From Bacteroidaceae bacterium (GTDB lineage: Bacteria > Bacteroidota > Bacteroidia > Bacteroidales > Bacteroidaceae): 64,000 nucleotides of DNA. The stretch is taken from positions 43,041 to 107,040 of the forward strand of contig JAFUYM010000013.1 in the NCBI GenBank assembly GCA_017470525.1. Reading direction: 5' to 3'. Below are positions 16,182-63,450 of this stretch, piece after piece; the first letter of the stretch is position 1; each line of letters opens with the position of its first letter. Position numbers and translations under genes: made by a program. The notes under the pieces are model-generated. The model saw only the letters and a list, made by a program, of their open reading frames with translations. It made no database searches and was not told the origin of the DNA.

Positions 16182-16202
16182 TATAGACTTCATCTTGCAC
16201 TC

Positions 16203-16347
16203 ATGAGGGTGTGTCAAAATACATGCTTCTATAGCCTCTGAATCGATATCGACGACATCGACTGACCGATGTCGTCGACATCGGTTAACCGACATCGACG
16301 ATGTCGATTTCGAGGAGTTGAGACGATGTAATTTGACACACCCTCAT
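16203..16347. repeat. Inverted-repeat element with 19-nt palindromic units (locus B)
   Basis: Outer arms ATGAGGGTGTGTCAAA (16203-16218) and TTTGACACACCCTCAT (16332-16347) are exact complements. Between them are the flank GCCTCTGAA (16234-16242) and three 19-nt units at 16243-16261, 16266-16284 and 16289-16307 (TCGATATCGACGACATCGA, CCGATGTCGTCGACATCGG, CCGACATCGACGATGTCGA) with 4-nt linkers. It lies between the convergent ntpK and helicase genes and may also end transcription from both sides. Confidence 0.85.
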
Positions 16348-24263: not shown

Positions 24264-27200
24264 TTATATGGGTACGATGAGGCTGTCCAGAATGTACCAC
24301 AGGAAGGCTTTCACCTCGGTGTAGCCAATCTGTGCAAGAAGCCGTTTATAATCGTCTATTTGTTTTTTGTTTTCGCTGGGCGGCACAAAAGTCCCGTCTG
24401 CTTTTTGGCGCACCACCCCCTGTGCCGTTTTGTAGTCGATGATGATGGCTTGGTTGCCGTTCACAATGACGCGGTCAGGACGTTTCGTCACGAGCATATG
24501 ATTCTCAAGGAAAAGAATGGCGCGCTCGTTCAGAGCCTGCCAGTCGGGTGAGAACCATTCGGGGTGCTCGGGCATGATGTCTTCAATCATTCGGCTCACA
24601 GCCTCCCGTGCCTCTTGGGCATCGAGCAAAGTGCCGAAACAGCCTTTTGATTCGAGCAAACGAACCGCATGCGGTACATCATCCACCGTTCGGATGCGTT
24701 CAAAGATGGCATGATACAAGTTGCCAAGACTGATGAGACGGATTCGCTCGGAATGTTGTTGTGTTTTCGGATGGGGAGAGTCTTCTGTGATGAATAGGTC
24801 TGATTCGTAACTTTGCCTGAATTCTGCCACCGAAGGGTGGGAGACAAACGAAACGGGTAGTGCATCATATTCACATTCCATCACATTCCGCTCTTTCTGC
24901 TGTTCGTGATTCTCCTCTTTTTCATGTTTGCTCCCCACAATCTTTCCCATCTGATACTGCATGATGACTCCTTCGACATCGGTTTGTTCCATCTGTTCAG
25001 GCATGGATTTGATGAGGAAAGATTGAGCGGTCTCCACTTTCCCATCTATATCTAAGGTTTTGCCTATTTTGTTGCCAGTCAAGATGATAAGGTTGTGCTT
25101 GGCACGTGTGAAAGCCACGTATAGCACATTGATGTTATCGACCAGTGTTCGTAGTTCTTCCTCACGGCGGTCAGCGGCAAAGATGCTATCATCTTTAGCC
25201 TTGTTCACGCTGATAGGCAGTAGCGGCATTTGGTTGTAAGGGGCAGTGTTGGGCATGCACCACATCACCTCTTTGTCATTCGGTTTGATGGACCATGAGC
25301 AGGAAGGGATGATAACGCTATGAAATTCGAGACCTTTTGATTTGTGCATGGTCATGATGCGTACGCCCTCTGATGCTCCATTGGGGATGGTCTTCTCGCA
25401 GAGTTTTTCGTCCCATGCTTGCAGGAAGGTGTCAAGGTCGGTCATGTTATCCTCACAAAATTGCTCCACAATGTCATTGAAAAAGAAAAGGTACGCATCT
25501 TGGTTGGGCAGTTCGTCCAGATGGAAGATTTGGTAGATTTCTTCCGTCAGTTCCGTCAATGACTTGAATTGCATTTCCTGCCGTGCCTTCAGGTTGAAGC
25601 CATTGGGGATGGGTTTCCCGTAGTGATGTTCCAGCGTTGTCAAGTGCAGTTTGTCGTCTTGAGCAGCCAACACTCTCATGGCATCAATGATGAGATTGAT
25701 GGCTGGCGATGCATCCAGTCGGAAGGCATCGTCGGACACCACTTTTACATTCAGCATCTCTTGGTGAGAATTGAAATAGTCACTAATGAGTGGCACCTCT
25801 TTATTGGTTCTGATGAGGATGGTGATGTCGTTGGCGTTCACCCCATTATCTATCAACTCCTTTACTGATAGTTGAATGCGTTGCAAGGTTGCTTCATCGT
25901 ACTTTTCAGAGGTCTCCTTGTCCCACACTTCAGGCAGATTCTCTGGGTCGATATTGTGGTAGTCGATGTTCTCAATCCTCACAAATCCTGCCTCTTGGCT
26001 TTTCTTGGCAATTTGATGCACATCGCCGTATGCCGTAGAGAGGGCAGGGCAGTCTTCCTTCAAAATGTCTATCGCATTTTTAAACAGTTCGTTGTTGAAA
26101 TCCACCACGCGTTTGGAAGAACGGAAGTTGAAGGTGGCAGGAATGTGCTCCATATAATTCTTCAACTCTTTGTCTTTTTCAATACCGTTCAGAATTTGCC
26201 AATCAGAGTTTCGGAAGCGGTAGATGCTCTGTTTTACGTCGCCTACAATCAGGCATGAACCATCCATCGAAAGGCTGTTCAGAATGAGCGGTTTGAAATT
26301 GCCCCATTGTAGGGTGGAGGTGTCTTGAAACTCGTCAATCATGATATGTTTGATGACGGCACCAGTCTTTTCGTAAATGAAAGGGATGTCCTGATTGTTC
26401 ATCACATTGCGCAGGAAATTCGCAGTTTCAGACAAGAGGAATCGGTTGCTGTTCTCGTTCAGCGACTTCACCGTCTGGCTGATTTCATTGAGCAGCATGA
26501 GCGAATACAAATGCTGAGTGATTGCTGTTACCGTGTGCAGGTGGCTCACATATTCCGTATGTCGTTCGAAGGCTTCAGACAACAGGGGCATCAGCATCCG
26601 CTCCACCTGTGGCTGCAACACATCTCGGTTTTTTGAGGTCTTCTTAAACCATTTGTCCACATTTTCACGATATTCCCCGATGGCATCAGAAAAAGTGCCA
26701 GGGCTTTGTGTGGTCGGTTCCGTAATTCGATAATCGCGAACCTTCTCCATAAATGTGAAAATGGTCTTGCTCCCGTCTTTCTCCGTCATTCCACAATTTT
26801 CCCATGCCTCCAGCATCTTTTTGCCAACCTCTATTACTGCCGATTTCTTCTCTTCCAACAGATTGTTGATGATGCTTTTGTACTTGAAAATGGCATTGAA
26901 GTCTGTAATTTTCTGCCTCACATCCTCTCCATGAATCAGGTAGTTCTCTTTGAAAATGCAACGTCCGAACTCCTTCACCGTTTCCTCCACTTGCCACGAA
27001 CGGTTTTCCCTGATTTTCTCCTCAATAAACTCAATGATGGTTCGGAACTCGCTCGAGCCTTCACGCAGGTTTTCGATGATTTGGTCGATGGCATCTGATA
27101 GTACTTCCGTTTCGTCCAACTCCACTTTCATCTTGGTGGAAAGTTCCAGTTCGCTGGCTATCTCGCGCACAATGCTCTGAAAAAACGAGTCGATAGTTTC

Positions 27201-27575
27201 GATGTGGAAACGGCTGTAATCATGGATGATGTTCGACAAGGCTTCCTTTGCCCGCTGTCTCAACACGTCGCGGTTCATCTTTGTCAAAGCCGAGCGGTAA
27301 GGCTCTTCCTGATAGGGTGGCATTGATTTTCTTGCCTCAAGGTTCTGCAAGATGTTGTCGATGTAGTCATTCGCACTGGTCAGTCCATTCGCGATGCCGT
27401 AAAGCGTAGCCAAGATGCGTTGCTTCATCTCTGCCGTCGCCTTGTTCGTGAAGGTCACCGCAAGGATGTTCTGATAAGCCATCGGATTCACCGCCAGCAG
27501 AGAGATATATTCCACTGCCAGTGTGAATGTTTTGCCCGAACCTGCCGATGCTTTGTAAATCCGCAATGGTTTCAT
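24264..27575 (-). CDS. addA: AddA/RecB-like UvrD helicase-nuclease
   Basis: This is a DNA end-resection helicase for double-strand break repair. Walker A is at residues 9-16 (ASAGSGKT); later SF1A motifs include IMIDEFQDTSTLQW, VGDVKQSIYRFRNSD, RIMTMHKSKGLEFHSVII and LYVAFTRAKHNL. The C-terminal ~150 residues hold a PD-(D/E)XK nuclease region ending in AIIIDYKTA. Length of 1103 residues fits AddA. The partner subunit AddB is not next to it, which is unusual. ATG 27575 is preferred because a TATCTTTG box lies at 27610-27617 on the minus strand; ATG 27590 or 27593 would leave almost no leader. Confidence 0.85.
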   Translation of the reverse strand: MKPLRIYKASAGSGKTFTLAVEYISLLAVNPMAYQNILAVTFTNKATAEMKQRILATLYGIANGLTSANDYIDNILQNLEARKSMPPYQEEPYRSALTKMNRDVLRQRAKEALSNIIHDYSRFHIETIDSFFQSIVREIASELELSTKMKVELDETEVLSDAIDQIIENLREGSSEFRTIIEFIEEKIRENRSWQVEETVKEFGRCIFKENYLIHGEDVRQKITDFNAIFKYKSIINNLLEEKKSAVIEVGKKMLEAWENCGMTEKDGSKTIFTFMEKVRDYRITEPTTQSPGTFSDAIGEYRENVDKWFKKTSKNRDVLQPQVERMLMPLLSEAFERHTEYVSHLHTVTAITQHLYSLMLLNEISQTVKSLNENSNRFLLSETANFLRNVMNNQDIPFIYEKTGAVIKHIMIDEFQDTSTLQWGNFKPLILNSLSMDGSCLIVGDVKQSIYRFRNSDWQILNGIEKDKELKNYMEHIPATFNFRSSKRVVDFNNELFKNAIDILKEDCPALSTAYGDVHQIAKKSQEAGFVRIENIDYHNIDPENLPEVWDKETSEKYDEATLQRIQLSVKELIDNGVNANDITILIRTNKEVPLISDYFNSHQEMLNVKVVSDDAFRLDASPAINLIIDAMRVLAAQDDKLHLTTLEHHYGKPIPNGFNLKARQEMQFKSLTELTEEIYQIFHLDELPNQDAYLFFFNDIVEQFCEDNMTDLDTFLQAWDEKLCEKTIPNGASEGVRIMTMHKSKGLEFHSVIIPSCSWSIKPNDKEVMWCMPNTAPYNQMPLLPISVNKAKDDSIFAADRREEELRTLVDNINVLYVAFTRAKHNLIILTGNKIGKTLDIDGKVETAQSFLIKSMPEQMEQTDVEGVIMQYQMGKIVGSKHEKEENHEQQKERNVMECEYDALPVSFVSHPSVAEFRQSYESDLFITEDSPHPKTQQHSERIRLISLGNLYHAIFERIRTVDDVPHAVRLLESKGCFGTLLDAQEAREAVSRMIEDIMPEHPEWFSPDWQALNERAILFLENHMLVTKRPDRVIVNGNQAIIIDYKTAQGVVRQKADGTFVPPSENKKQIDDYKRLLAQIGYTEVKAFLWYILDSLIVPI

Positions 27576-27609
27576 GCTCTTGTCTTCCATCATCCAGCCA
27601 ATTTGACTG

Positions 27610-27617
27610 CAAAGATA
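27610..27617 (-). promoter_or_regulatory. -7 box of the addA-like gene
   Basis: TATCTTTG on the minus strand, 34 bp before ATG 27575. Confidence 0.7.
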
Positions 27618-27751
27618 GGAAAAAAAACTAAGAAGTTCAAGGAGAATGATAAAATTCATCATATAGACCTCAATTTATCATACATATTTTTTGTGCTGCA
27701 TCTTTTGCCGAAAATGGATTCACGAATATTGCTCTCAATGTCTCTTCAAGA

Positions 27752-27834
27752 ACCTCTAAATCGATGTGCTCCACTCCGCTTTGTCGATGTGCTCCACATC
27801 GATTGACCGATGTGGAGCACATCGATTTAGAGGT
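27752..27834. repeat. 19-nt palindromic unit element (locus C)
   Basis: Complementary flanks ACCTCTAAA (27752-27760) and TTTAGAGGT (27826-27834) enclose three 19-nt units: TCGATGTGCTCCACTCCGC (27761-27779), TCGATGTGCTCCACATCGA (27784-27802) and CCGATGTGGAGCACATCGA (27807-27825), with 4-nt linkers TTTG and TTGA. This is the most symmetrical copy. Confidence 0.9.
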
Positions 27835-28142: not shown

Positions 28143-28338
28143 CTTCAATGTCAACGAAATACTCAATTTTGTGAGGTGTTTATGCCTTGAGTCTGTAAGG
28201 TTGTGTATATCGCCAAATGATGGTGCTACATTGTTGTATGGATAAAAGAGTGTACAATATTATGAGGTGAATGTCCCCCTTTTATCCTCTCTCTTTGTTT
28301 TTTTCGAGATGGAAGGTGTGAAAATGAAAAAAACTTTG

Positions 28339-28346
28339 TATCTTTG
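28339..28346 (+). promoter_or_regulatory. -7 box of the HNH endonuclease gene
   Basis: TATCTTTG lies 40 bp before ATG 28387. It falls inside the longer open frame that begins at 28267, so that longer start is unlikely. Confidence 0.6.
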
Positions 28347-28386
28347 CACTGATATTTGTAGCATTCGAAAAGAAATAGAAAAGGTT

Positions 28387-29583
28387 ATGACAGCATGGAG
28401 ATGGGATCAAGGACGTGTTTTGTATTTTCAATTTGATGTACTTCGGGAAATAGCGAAGGTTTTGGTCACATTTGAGGAGAAAGACATCAATGATAATTCA
28501 ATTAACGATGATTTACGAAAATCGTTAATGGAAAATGTTGGTTTACCATTCGCTCCGGGAAGTTATAAGATTAATAGGAACTATTCACGGGTGTTTCAAT
28601 GCGCGTTATTGGCACGTCTGCAAGGAAAAAGTCTTTATGTATCTGACATTTGCAAGTTGCTGGCCTCTGATGATTCTTATTTGTCTAATTGTGATAATTA
28701 CATGTATGAGATTGTTAGGCGGTTCCGTTTCCCATTTCCTGCTTTCGACGATTATGAAGCGCAGGCAGAACGCATCTATCCCTTTTGTGCAATTATCAAG
28801 TATCTCATAGCTCTAAGAGAACAAGGGCGTGAAGCAAAAGTTTCTTTAGATGATATTTGTAGTTTTATCATAGGCAATTCATGCACAGGACTTGAGGATG
28901 TGGATTTTTACAAAACTCTTCATCCAACGGCATATAGAGTAGAGGGCGATTCCGTAAGACAACTTCGTGAGATGCTTGCCTTTATCAGCCAATGGAGTTT
29001 CTTTAAAGTATTTAACAAAGAGCTTTATTTAGATGTTTATGGTGATGAAGATATTAAGCATCTATTGCAAAACATTCATATCCTAAATGTTCAAGAGCCG
29101 ATGGCTGATAAAGGTGATGAATTTTGCAAAATGACAAAGGTTTTAAGACAGTTGGTTATTCCTAATGTGAATACATCTTCTGTCAATCTTCAGTCACCGC
29201 TAAGTATTCTTGACAAAGATTTTACGGAGGGAAAAAGAGTTCGAGTTCAACATTTAAGAATTGAACGAAGTACATTGTTACGTAAATTCTACATATCCTT
29301 ACATCCAGAACCTGTTTGCGAGGCCTGTAAGGAGCATGTGAGAGAGAAATATCCATGGGTCGATTACATGTTGGATGTTCATCATTTATTACCATTGGCA
29401 TCTGTAATAAAACTTTCGATAGAAGGAACTTCGTTAGATGATATGGTCGGTTTGTGTCCATCTTGCCATAAGGCTATTCATTCTTATTACAGAAAGTGGC
29501 TGAAGGCGAACAATCAGGATGATTTTAAGAGTAAGCAAGAAGCTATGTCTGTCTATTTAAATGCGGTAAAGGAGATTGCGTGA
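28387..29583 (+). CDS. HNH endonuclease, probable type II restriction enzyme
   Basis: The protein has 398 residues from ATG 28387. The first ~300 residues are unrecognised and presumably bind DNA. The C-terminus (about 310-375) is an HNH nuclease module: zinc pair CEAC, then DVHHLLPLASV with the catalytic histidines, and CPSCHKAIH as the second zinc pair and final His. The stop overlaps the methyltransferase start (TGATG), so endonuclease and methylase are translationally coupled as a restriction-modification unit. The gene is clearly AT-richer than pheT and the housekeeping genes, a sign of transfer. Recognition sequence cannot be predicted. The longer start at 28267 is rejected on promoter position. 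Confidence 0.85.
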   Translation: MTAWRWDQGRVLYFQFDVLREIAKVLVTFEEKDINDNSINDDLRKSLMENVGLPFAPGSYKINRNYSRVFQCALLARLQGKSLYVSDICKLLASDDSYLSNCDNYMYEIVRRFRFPFPAFDDYEAQAERIYPFCAIIKYLIALREQGREAKVSLDDICSFIIGNSCTGLEDVDFYKTLHPTAYRVEGDSVRQLREMLAFISQWSFFKVFNKELYLDVYGDEDIKHLLQNIHILNVQEPMADKGDEFCKMTKVLRQLVIPNVNTSSVNLQSPLSILDKDFTEGKRVRVQHLRIERSTLLRKFYISLHPEPVCEACKEHVREKYPWVDYMLDVHHLLPLASVIKLSIEGTSLDDMVGLCPSCHKAIHSYYRKWLKANNQDDFKSKQEAMSVYLNAVKEIA

Positions 29584-39608: not shown

Positions 39609-39685
39609 GCCTCTTCATCGTACTGCTCCAGTCCGATGAACCGCACTGCTCCAGTCCGACACATCGGACTGGAGCAGTGCGATTT
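39609..39685. repeat. 19-nt palindromic unit element (locus D)
   Basis: The flank GCCTCTTCA (39609-39617) is followed by units TCGTACTGCTCCAGTCCGA (39618-39636), CCGCACTGCTCCAGTCCGA (39641-39659) and TCGGACTGGAGCAGTGCGA (39664-39682), with linkers TGAA and CACA, then TTTTT. The rest of 39414-39608 holds nothing I recognise. Confidence 0.9.
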
Positions 39686-51450: not shown

Positions 51451-51861
51451 TCAGTTCTCAGGGTTTTCGTTCAGAGCATCCATATCTTCGAAATCCATCC
51501 TTCTCAAGGTGTCCTGAAACTCCTTGTGCGGGAAAAACCGCACCTTCACCGTTCGGACGAGTTCGGTGCCCAAATCGGCAGGGTTTTCCGCGCTCGAAGC
51601 ATTAAAGACAGGTTTCAGTGTGCCGATGCCACCCAGTTGCACACTGTGCCCCAGTTCCAGATAGTGGCGCAGACGGTCGGACATCGCGGTGGCAATGCCT
51701 TTCACTTGAGCGGCTGACACGCCTTGCGACATCACGCACTCTTTCACAAAGTTCTCAAACTTCACAGGTGGATAACTCACCTGCTGCATCACCCAAGCCT
51801 CACGCATCGTGTACTCGGGAGTGAAGACTGACTTCTTCACTTTCCGGTATGCAATAGACAT
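51451..51861 (-). CDS. HU-family-like DNA-binding protein (Bacteroidetes histone-like type)
   Basis: The protein has 136 residues. It starts MSIAYRKVKKSVFT and contains the helical part FENFVKECVMSQGVSAAQVKGIATAMSDRL and the strand LGHSVQLGGIGTLKPVFN, the pattern of the HU-related family abundant in Bacteroidetes. The C-terminal part, ending FPHKEFQDTLRRMDF, is longer than classical HU (~90 residues). It probably binds and bends DNA, but sequence specificity is unknown. A TAACTTTG box lies at 51919-51926 on the minus strand. Confidence 0.85.
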   Translation of the reverse strand: MSIAYRKVKKSVFTPEYTMREAWVMQQVSYPPVKFENFVKECVMSQGVSAAQVKGIATAMSDRLRHYLELGHSVQLGGIGTLKPVFNASSAENPADLGTELVRTVKVRFFPHKEFQDTLRRMDFEDMDALNENPEN

Positions 51862-51918: not shown

Positions 51919-51926
51919 CAAAGTTA
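51919..51926 (-). promoter_or_regulatory. -7 box of the HU-like gene
   Basis: TAACTTTG on the minus strand, 57 bp before the start codon. Confidence 0.65.
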
Positions 51927-52000
51927 CGAAAAAAAATCGTAATATGCAAGACCTTTGTATAATTACTTCATCCTGAATCTCTTAAAATATTTCTTCCAGA

Positions 52001-52077
52001 ACCCCTGAATCGGACTGCTCCAGTCCGGTGAACCGCACTGCTCCAGTCCGACGCACCGCACTGGAGCAGTCCGACAG
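52001..52077. repeat. 19-nt palindromic unit element (locus E)
   Basis: The flank ACCCCTGAA (52001-52009) is followed by units TCGGACTGCTCCAGTCCGG (52010-52028), CCGCACTGCTCCAGTCCGA (52033-52051) and CCGCACTGGAGCAGTCCGA (52056-52074), with linkers TGAA and CGCA. It lies between the divergent HU-like and lipoprotein genes; unit 2 is identical to unit 2 of locus D. Confidence 0.9.
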
Positions 52078-63374: not shown

Positions 63375-63450
63375 CCTTAAAAATCGGACTGCTCCAGTCC
63401 GCCGTGCCGCACTGGAGCAGTCCGATGCGTCGGAGTGGAGCAGTCCGAAA
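63375..63450. repeat. 19-nt palindromic unit element (locus F)
   Basis: A weak flank CCTTAAAAA is followed by units TCGGACTGCTCCAGTCCGC (63384-63402), CCGCACTGGAGCAGTCCGA (63407-63425) and TCGGAGTGGAGCAGTCCGA (63430-63448), with linkers CGTG and TGCG. Unit 2 is identical to unit 3 of locus E. Confidence 0.9.

What the first reader, a model, noticed from the sequence alone, without database searches (positions are those of the whole stretch)
27752..27834. A family of intergenic elements built as three 19-nt near-palindromes at exact 23-nt spacing, with locus-specific palindromes
Seen directly: five loci (16243, 27761, 39618, 52010, 63384) each contain 19-nt unit, 4-nt linker, 19-nt unit, 4-nt linker, 19-nt unit. 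Four have a clear left flank close to RCCTCTRAA ending exactly at unit 1; at 63375 it is weak. Here the flanks are also complementary (ACCTCTAAA / TTTAGAGGT). The palindrome differs between loci (GATGTCGTCGACATC, GATGTGCTCCACATC, GGACTGCTCCAGTCC) but is shared among units of one locus. Geometry is conserved while sequence changes in concert. That suggests selection for foldback structure plus local copying or gene conversion, or a REP-like element moved by a transposase encoded elsewhere. I know of no named family with this design.
Basis: seen in the sequence. Interest (0 to 1): 0.88.

Follow-up and report, generated by a model that had tools for sequence, protein, structure and literature searches.

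The report
Triple-palindrome arrays matched to HU proteins
Dozens of same-format DNA elements, each three short mirror-image sequences 23 bases apart, are scattered through certain gut bacteria in species-specific 'dialects' that mostly match the dialect beside that species' own HU-type DNA-binding gene, which points to an undescribed DNA-marking system.

Summary
The window holds five arrays of three 17-nt near-palindromes (CG...CG) at exactly 23-nt period; at least 77 places exist in its genome. 20 of 37 same-genus genomes match, 0 of 24 from other genera. Y1 transposases do not track the arrays. An HU-fold protein (Pfam HU-HIG), here window 51451-51861 beside the 52011 array, does: close homologues occur in 14 of 16 array-rich and 0 of 21 poor or array-free genomes. 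Of 23 such genes, 19 have a three-unit array 104-450 nt upstream, two have one 709-862 nt away, one has two units, one none. Palindrome 'flavours' follow the HU gene tree, and scattered arrays match their genome's HU-upstream flavours in 164 of 207 (2 of 5040 permutations as high). At one in-frame site in a glycerate kinase gene 11 species carry the array in four flavours: flavours seem rewritten in place. Best reading: sequence-specific HU-HIG binding sites. Binding and function are inferred. G003, G013 and part of G014 do not fit.

The parts
16244..16306 (.). Triple array, flavour G (CGAYRTCG-T-CGAYRTCG type), nested in a longer inverted-repeat element (GAGGGTGTGTCAAA ends)
27752..27834 (.). 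The element of the finding: flank ACCTCTAAAT, three units 27762-27778, 27785-27801, 27808-27824 (GATGTGCTCCACATC type), flank ATTTAGAGGT; lies between divergent ORFs 24264-27662(-) and 28267-29583(+)
39619..39681 (.). Triple array, flavour A (CGGACTGCTCCAGTCCG type)
52011..52073 (.). Triple array, flavour A, upstream of the HU-HIG gene; its end lies 84 nt before the -7 box
63385..63447 (.). Triple array, flavour A; left flank weak
51451..51861 (-). HU-HIG gene (136 aa, PF18291, HU/IHF fold), proposed cognate DNA-binding protein of flavour A
51919..51949 (-). Predicted promoter of the HU-HIG gene: TTG, 20 nt, TAACTTTG

Best explanation
The arrays are dispersed, sequence-specific binding sites for a dedicated clade of HU/IHF-fold proteins (HU-HIG). 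Each array is six half-sites in alternating orientation, forming three 17-bp dyads at a 23-bp period; the CG ends are common to nearly all and the inner five positions of each arm are the specificity 'flavour'. A genome carries one or a few HU-HIG paralogues; each typically has an array of its own flavour just upstream of its promoter (probably autoregulation) and owns a set of scattered arrays of the same flavour (7 to 36 for the matched flavours of the three genomes read most fully). When a paralogue's specificity drifts, the scattered arrays follow in place, by selection or by copying from other arrays, without moving. SHOWN: the arrays, their geometry and copy number, the HU-HIG neighbour, the flavour match, different flavours at one orthologous site. 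INFERRED: binding, autoregulation, the rewriting mechanism, and the function. The function I think most likely is anchoring or marking chromosome domains: about one array per 42 kb in the window's genome, with short spacings avoided there.
For: Co-occurrence: HU-HIG genes with E below 1e-50 in 14 of 16 genomes with 15 or more model matches, 0 of 21 with 0-2 matches. Position: of 23 such genes 19 have a three-unit array 104-450 nt upstream, two at 709 and 862 nt, one a two-unit array, one none; no three-unit array downstream in the stretches held. Register: from the array end to the -7 box of the first TTG-N20-TAnnTTT promoter is 60-63 (11 loci, L287 by its TAnnTTTG box alone), 84-86 (2) or 106-109 nt (6), steps of 23, in 19 of 21; many of these are orthologues, and in L288 and L088 that promoter lies about 280 and 600 nt before the HU start. 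Flavour on the HU tree: 8 changes for 8 classes against 10-14 in 300 shuffles. Scattered arrays match the genome's HU-upstream flavours in 164 of 207 typed arrays of seven genomes (158 of 201 without six HU-upstream copies); per-genome mean 80% observed against 23% on permuting HU sets, 2 of 5040 as high including the true one. A more distant HU-HIG (L270, 38% identity, genome G024) predicts its own flavour, found in 4 of 8 G024 loci. In-place change: glycerate kinase site, array in frame in 11 of 17 readable genomes with flavours G, D, C and Bp, absent in 6; flavour matches an own HU in 9 of 10 genomes that have a close one. Protein: HU-HIG by Pfam, AlphaFold model pLDDT 89.6, PDB matches of the HU/IHF kind.
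Against: G003 is rich in arrays (8 G, 3 C of 11 read) yet no close HU-HIG gene was found in a 98%-complete assembly. G013's glycerate-kinase array is D while its HU is G. G014 has 17 B arrays without a B-clade HU found, and at most two arrays resembling its second HU's flavour E. The B-clade HU of the window's genome (L284) has no array. Array-rich genomes may be mostly relatives, so shared ancestry inflates the counts; flavour on the HU tree partly reflects plain cis linkage. HU-family proteins mostly show little sequence specificity (general knowledge). No binding, expression or strain data exist here. R1 was built from the window's own copies, and only part of the matches were read: G007 16, G035 17, G018 25, G036 5 of larger lists.
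Confidence: 0.7

Rival explanations
1. Selfish MITE-like elements spread by an unidentified transposase; the HU-HIG protein is at most an architectural helper of their movement.
For: Flanks form imperfect terminal inverted repeats (CTTCCACARCCTCTAAAT) in many copies; patchy distribution; copies lie in frame inside a few genes: 5 of 74 own and 7 of 74 GTDB elements sit in an ORF by a loose test; 11 own copies have at least one end of a longer element, GAGGGTGTGTCAAA.
Against: No transposase recurs among the immediate neighbours (transposase families other than Y1 were not searched genome-wide); no target duplication was identified; most G018 arrays read lack the CCTCT flank; flavours differ at fixed sites while the right-hand flank stays the same, which transposition does not readily explain; no autonomous copy was seen, though it was not sought by a dedicated search.
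Confidence: 0.17
2. RNA-level elements: hairpins at mRNA 3' ends acting as terminators, stabilisers or attenuators.
For: Arrays lie nearer stops (median 66 nt) than starts (median 222), own and GTDB sets together; 21 of 59 own intergenic cases are convergent against 26 of 175 gaps.
Against: In the GTDB set only 12 of 63 are convergent and 18 divergent. Within 150 nt, 66 promoters point away from an array and 6 toward it (at least 16 of the 66 are HU loci), so arrays near promoters are mostly upstream of them; pairing inside units is no better supported than pairing between units; no Rfam match in the window.
Confidence: 0.07
3. REP/BIME elements propagated by a RAYT (Y1 transposase).
For: Size, copy number, palindromes, intergenic bias; one REP-type Y1 protein in the genome (below the NCBIfam cut-off).
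Against: Y1_Tnp hits in 5 of 16 array-rich, 2 of 4 array-poor and 9 of 17 array-free genomes; its gene here has no array in its flanks; no GTAG or CGTC tag is a fixed end of the unit (flavour A units carry neither).
Confidence: 0.02
4. No functional link: an ancestral array happened to sit before the HU-HIG gene and was inherited; genome-wide flavour change is an independent conversion process.
For: The HU-upstream array keeps one register across paralogues, so it is probably old; other sites are shared between species too; relatedness confounds co-occurrence.
Against: Two paralogues of one genome keep different flavours, each matching a scattered set, e.g. G020 F 17 and B 7 of 32; a blind conversion process would tend to give them one flavour. 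Six of seven B-clade HU genes have a B array (one with two units, one at 862 nt) and none has another flavour.
Confidence: 0.12

Closest known systems
REP/BIME elements with RAYT (tnpA-REP) transposases
   Same: Short dispersed intergenic palindromes, many types, one partner gene suggested to coevolve with its REPs (PMC6006769, passages); the CGTC type is reported to lack a dedicated transposase and to occur also in Bacteroidetes (PMC3733652, passages)
   Different: Partner here is an HU-fold protein, not an HUH transposase; fixed three-unit 23-nt format; no fixed unpaired GTAG/CGTC tag (CGTC does occur inside many C, D and G units); Y1 genes do not track the arrays
BrickBuilt MITE of Porphyromonas gingivalis
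   Same: 23-nt tandem unit, intergenic, inverted-repeat ends (PMC4596501, parts 1-3 of 9 read); same phylum
   Different: BrickBuilt: 1 to 22.8 direct repeats of one degenerate consensus (AGAYCATARTATCCTCTCRTRTG), IS5-like ends, 19 copies; here mostly exactly three dyads, many flavours
PINSR repeat of Prevotella intermedia
   Same: High-copy intergenic repeat of a Prevotella lineage (PMC4755523, abstract and passages)
   Different: 188 bp, no terminal inverted repeats, no three-unit format described in what I saw
Rickettsia palindromic elements (RPE)
   Same: Palindromic repeats in frame inside protein genes (PMC10969869, passages)
   Different: Only a small minority of our arrays are intragenic; flavour rewriting and an HU partner are not mentioned in the passages seen
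Dispersed sites with a dedicated chromosome protein (matS-MatP, parS-ParB) and DNA-uptake dialects with ComP (recalled, no call)
   Same: Scattered recognition sites matched to one protein, lineage dialects
   Different: Several dialects per genome, one HU paralogue each, in triple dyads

Membership tests
REP/RAYT | RAYT (Y1) gene present where the repeats are and flanked by them | tested here: not met
   Y1 loci of other genomes were not checked for flanking arrays
REP/RAYT | 20-40 bp palindrome tagged at one end by GTAG or CGTC (PMC3733652, abstract and passages) | tested here: not met
   Unit ends are paired CG; flavour A units carry neither motif; CGTC occurs inside C, D and G units
MITE | Terminal inverted repeats | tested here: inconclusive
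   Imperfect in many own copies, lacking in most G018 copies read
MITE | Target-site duplication and a cognate transposase | tested here: inconclusive
   Empty glycerate-kinase alleles too diverged to read a duplication; no recurrent transposase among immediate neighbours
BrickBuilt | Its 23-nt consensus and IS5-type ends | tested here: not met
   By eye: printed consensus and ends
PINSR | 188-bp repeat without inverted ends | tested here: not met
   Element is 63 nt plus often inverted flanks; the PINSR sequence itself was not available to compare
Rickettsia palindromic elements | In-frame insertion in many protein genes | tested here: inconclusive
   5 of 74 and 7 of 74 by a loose ORF test, 1 of 74 each by a strict one; multiples of three at one site
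Rho-independent terminators | Hairpin followed by a T run at gene ends | tested here: inconclusive
   Three dyads, also upstream of promoters; no terminator scan was run
HU/IHF superfamily, HU-HIG (protein) | PF18291 above cut-off and HU fold | tested here: met
   70.3 bits against 26.2; HU and IHF structures among the best fold matches
HU/IHF superfamily, HU-HIG (protein) | Binds the arrays | not testable with these tools
   needs EMSA or ChIP-seq

The most novel reading that the evidence does not exclude
HU-fold proteins of this clade are sequence-specific readers: each paralogue owns a private, genome-wide dialect of triple-dyad arrays, controls its own gene through one of them, and drags its sites through dialect changes in place over evolution. 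The arrays would be an orthogonal, evolvable chromosome-organising code, with the 23-bp step as the repeat of a protein filament.
Probability: 0.45. Interest if true: 0.93.

Novelty: new variant of a known kind. Interest (0 to 1): 0.86.

Why it matters
HU-type proteins related to this one are present in many copies in these genomes (up to 15 matches per genome) and I know of no assigned target for HU-HIG. A cis element matched to a given paralogue makes their function directly testable. It would show sequence-specific dialects in the HU superfamily, and it gives a clean natural case of concerted evolution of dozens of dispersed sites, including one inside a coding gene where the encoded peptide changes with the dialect.

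Tried and rejected
RAYT/Y1 transposase as partner: tested and dropped. A transposase or other gene recurring beside arrays: clustering 280 neighbour proteins found no transposase among the clusters printed; the only recurrent DNA-binding neighbour was HU-HIG (5 rows, two of them one array). Rfam: no hit in the window at gathering thresholds. Hairpin covariation as proof of a fold: it does not discriminate, and two of its five measures barely exceed shuffles (pairs with a change on both sides 380/500, pair types 20/500 for the hairpin scheme). Promoter phasing at non-HU arrays: offsets are spread, no clear 23-nt register (judged by eye). A first promoter script used a wrong spacer and is void. 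A strict intragenic test found 2 of 148 and was loosened. Regular spacing as a general rule: clear in the window and its genome (intervals under 8 kb: 2 against 10.4 expected, P 0.0002; 2 against 12.0, P 0.0005, with simulated contigs) and in G003 (0 against 4.3, P 0.0075), not in G020 (6 against 9.2, P 0.15) or G014 (5 against 5.0). PDB by sequence: no hit. Paper searches listed no description of this system that I recognised; only open-licence papers are held and most listed papers were not opened.

Full report
OBSERVATION. The five loci are real and unlike chance. Period 23 is the only period from 19 to 31 that gives triple near-palindromes in the window, and 20 shuffles give none at the same threshold. 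The useful unit is a 17-mer CG-N13-CG with 6-nt linkers. In the whole genome a covariance model of the five copies lists 150 matches on both strands, with 150 of 634 candidates scored; I merged them to 77 places. 74 were parsed: 64 of three units, 9 of two, 1 of four (L108, L111 and L112 gave none). In 61 genomes, 20 of 37 of the genus and 0 of 24 of other genera match, under stricter filters that lose weak matches. The titles of the 74 are Bacteroidaceae, Prevotellaceae or Bacteroidales MAGs, several named after ruminants.

FLAVOURS. I name palindrome types A (CTGCTCCAG centre), B (ACCCCTCGGGT), Bp (ACCCGTCGGGT), C (GTGCCCCAC), D (GTCCCCGAC), E (GTTCGTCGAAC), F (CCACGTCGTGG), G (TCGTCGA), H (TGAGACTCTCA), I (TGTGAGTCACA). 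Units of one array mostly share a flavour, with some hybrids. The own genome has A 36, G 26, B 4, C 4, D 2, F 1, I 1 of 74. On 81 arrays of many flavours, pairing within units, pairing between neighbouring units and a whole fold-back give 90.1, 89.7 and 84.7% standard pairs, all far above slid controls. So each array is six concerted half-sites; the data do not say that hairpins form.

PARTNER. Y1 transposases fail as partner. The gene beside the 52011 array encodes a 136-aa HU-HIG protein. Its close homologues (E below 1e-50) are in G000, G002, G007, G010, G011, G013, G014, G017, G018, G020, G026, G033, G035, G036: 14 of the 16 genomes with 15 or more model matches; the other two rich ones are G003 and G024. 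None of the 21 genomes with 0-2 matches has one. Among 23 such genes read (at least 62% identity), 19 have a three-unit array 104-450 nt upstream, L088 at 709 and L255 at 862 nt, L261 a two-unit B array, L284 none. Of 27 more distant HU-type genes in the same table, 2 have one (L298, flavour H; L270, flavour I). From array density I would expect about 0.005 arrays per 220 nt (77 per 3.24 Mb; my arithmetic). The arrays lie upstream of promoters: from the array end to the -7 box of the first TTG-N20-TAnnTTT promoter is 60-63 nt in 11 loci (L287 has the box without the TTG), 84-86 in 2, 106-109 in 6, with L255 (95) and L262 (172) off; these are steps of 23. In L288 and L088 that promoter is far from the HU start and may serve something else. 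I read the steps as one old array that gains and loses whole units. The AlphaFold model (pLDDT 89.6) matches HU and IHF structures; the top hits are chains of 4fmr, a putative DNA-binding protein of Bacteroides vulgatus.

FLAVOUR MATCH. On the tree of the HU genes flavour needs 8 changes for 8 classes over 21 rows (10-14 in 300 shuffles). On a wider tree with 23 labelled rows flavour needs 10 changes for 10 classes and genome 20 for 15 genomes. Scattered arrays: G020 F 17 and B 7 of 32 typed (5 more loci gave no chain; HU flavours F and B); G014 D 18, B 17, G 3 of 38 (2 more gave no chain; HU flavours D and E); G007 C 15 of 16 (HU C and B); G035 Bp 17 of 17 (HU Bp); G018 C 25 of 25 (HU C, H and a two-unit B); G036 B 3 of 5 (HU B); own A and G 62 of 74. 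Sum 164 of 207; 2 of 5040 permutations as high, the true one included. Six HU-upstream copies are inside these counts; without them 158 of 201. In G024 4 of 8 loci have flavour I as predicted; three others form a related type at 24-nt period and one is a two-unit piece.

IN-PLACE CHANGE. Orthologous sites carry different flavours at or near the same position. The best case is a variable loop of a glycerate kinase ORF (named from its sequence, no family search): of 27 loci examined 17 could be read; 11 hold an array in frame (segment lengths 189, 195 or 204 nt) and 6 lack it (102-138 nt). Flavours: G in G000, G003, G017, G026, G010, G011; D in G014, G013; C in G007, G018; Bp in G035. The right edge RTTTTGA stays the same. 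Independent insertions at one base are less likely than one insertion and later rewriting, but are not excluded. A dead insertion would be expected to lose its symmetry over this divergence; something seems to maintain it.

FUNCTION. Within 150 nt, 66 promoters point away from an array and 6 toward it, over 303 elements, at least 16 of the 66 at HU genes. In the own genome 21 of 59 intergenic arrays are in convergent gaps against 26 of 175 gaps of 150 nt or more; in the GTDB set it is 12 of 63 (home-made gene caller). In the window the four successive distances are 11.5, 11.9, 12.4 and 11.4 kb (0 of 20,000 random draws as even), and short distances are avoided in the own genome and G003 but not clearly in G020 or G014. 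Domain anchoring or insertion immunity could both cause this. I commit to HU-HIG-bound chromosome sites as most likely, with the function the least certain step.

LITERATURE. Seen: abstract and passages of PMC4755523, passages of PMC10969869, PMC3733652 and PMC6006769, and parts 1-3 of 9 of PMC4596501. Proposed roles of HU-HIG come from a 2017 comparative paper that I recall and did not see; matS, parS, ComP dialects and supercoil-domain sizes are recalled too.

On recount I mended the spread of array-set sizes, the promoter wording, the GTDB convergent share, the six HU copies inside the match count and the terminator row (now inconclusive).

Noticed in passing
window 16243-63447: The five arrays, of different flavours, are spaced 11.5, 11.9, 12.4 and 11.4 kb apart, far more evenly than chance; the own genome avoids intervals under 8 kb, other genomes only partly.
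   Followed up: partly
window about 16200-16345: The G-flavour array is nested in a roughly 130-150-bp inverted-repeat element with ends GAGGGTGTGTCAAA; 11 own copies show at least one such end. Its transposase was not sought.
   Followed up: partly
L472, L476, L480: A related triple array at 24-nt instead of 23-nt period (CGGTCTGCCCCAGACCG type) in genome G024.
   Followed up: no
L347, L372: Arrays of six units; in L372 three C units are followed in register by three B-type units.
   Followed up: no
L113:1027-2007: A 326-aa Y1/REP-type transposase (NF047646, below cut-off) without arrays in its intergenic flanks.
   Followed up: yes
L095, window 27762: Hybrid units mixing arms of two flavours, possible intermediates of flavour change.
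   Followed up: no
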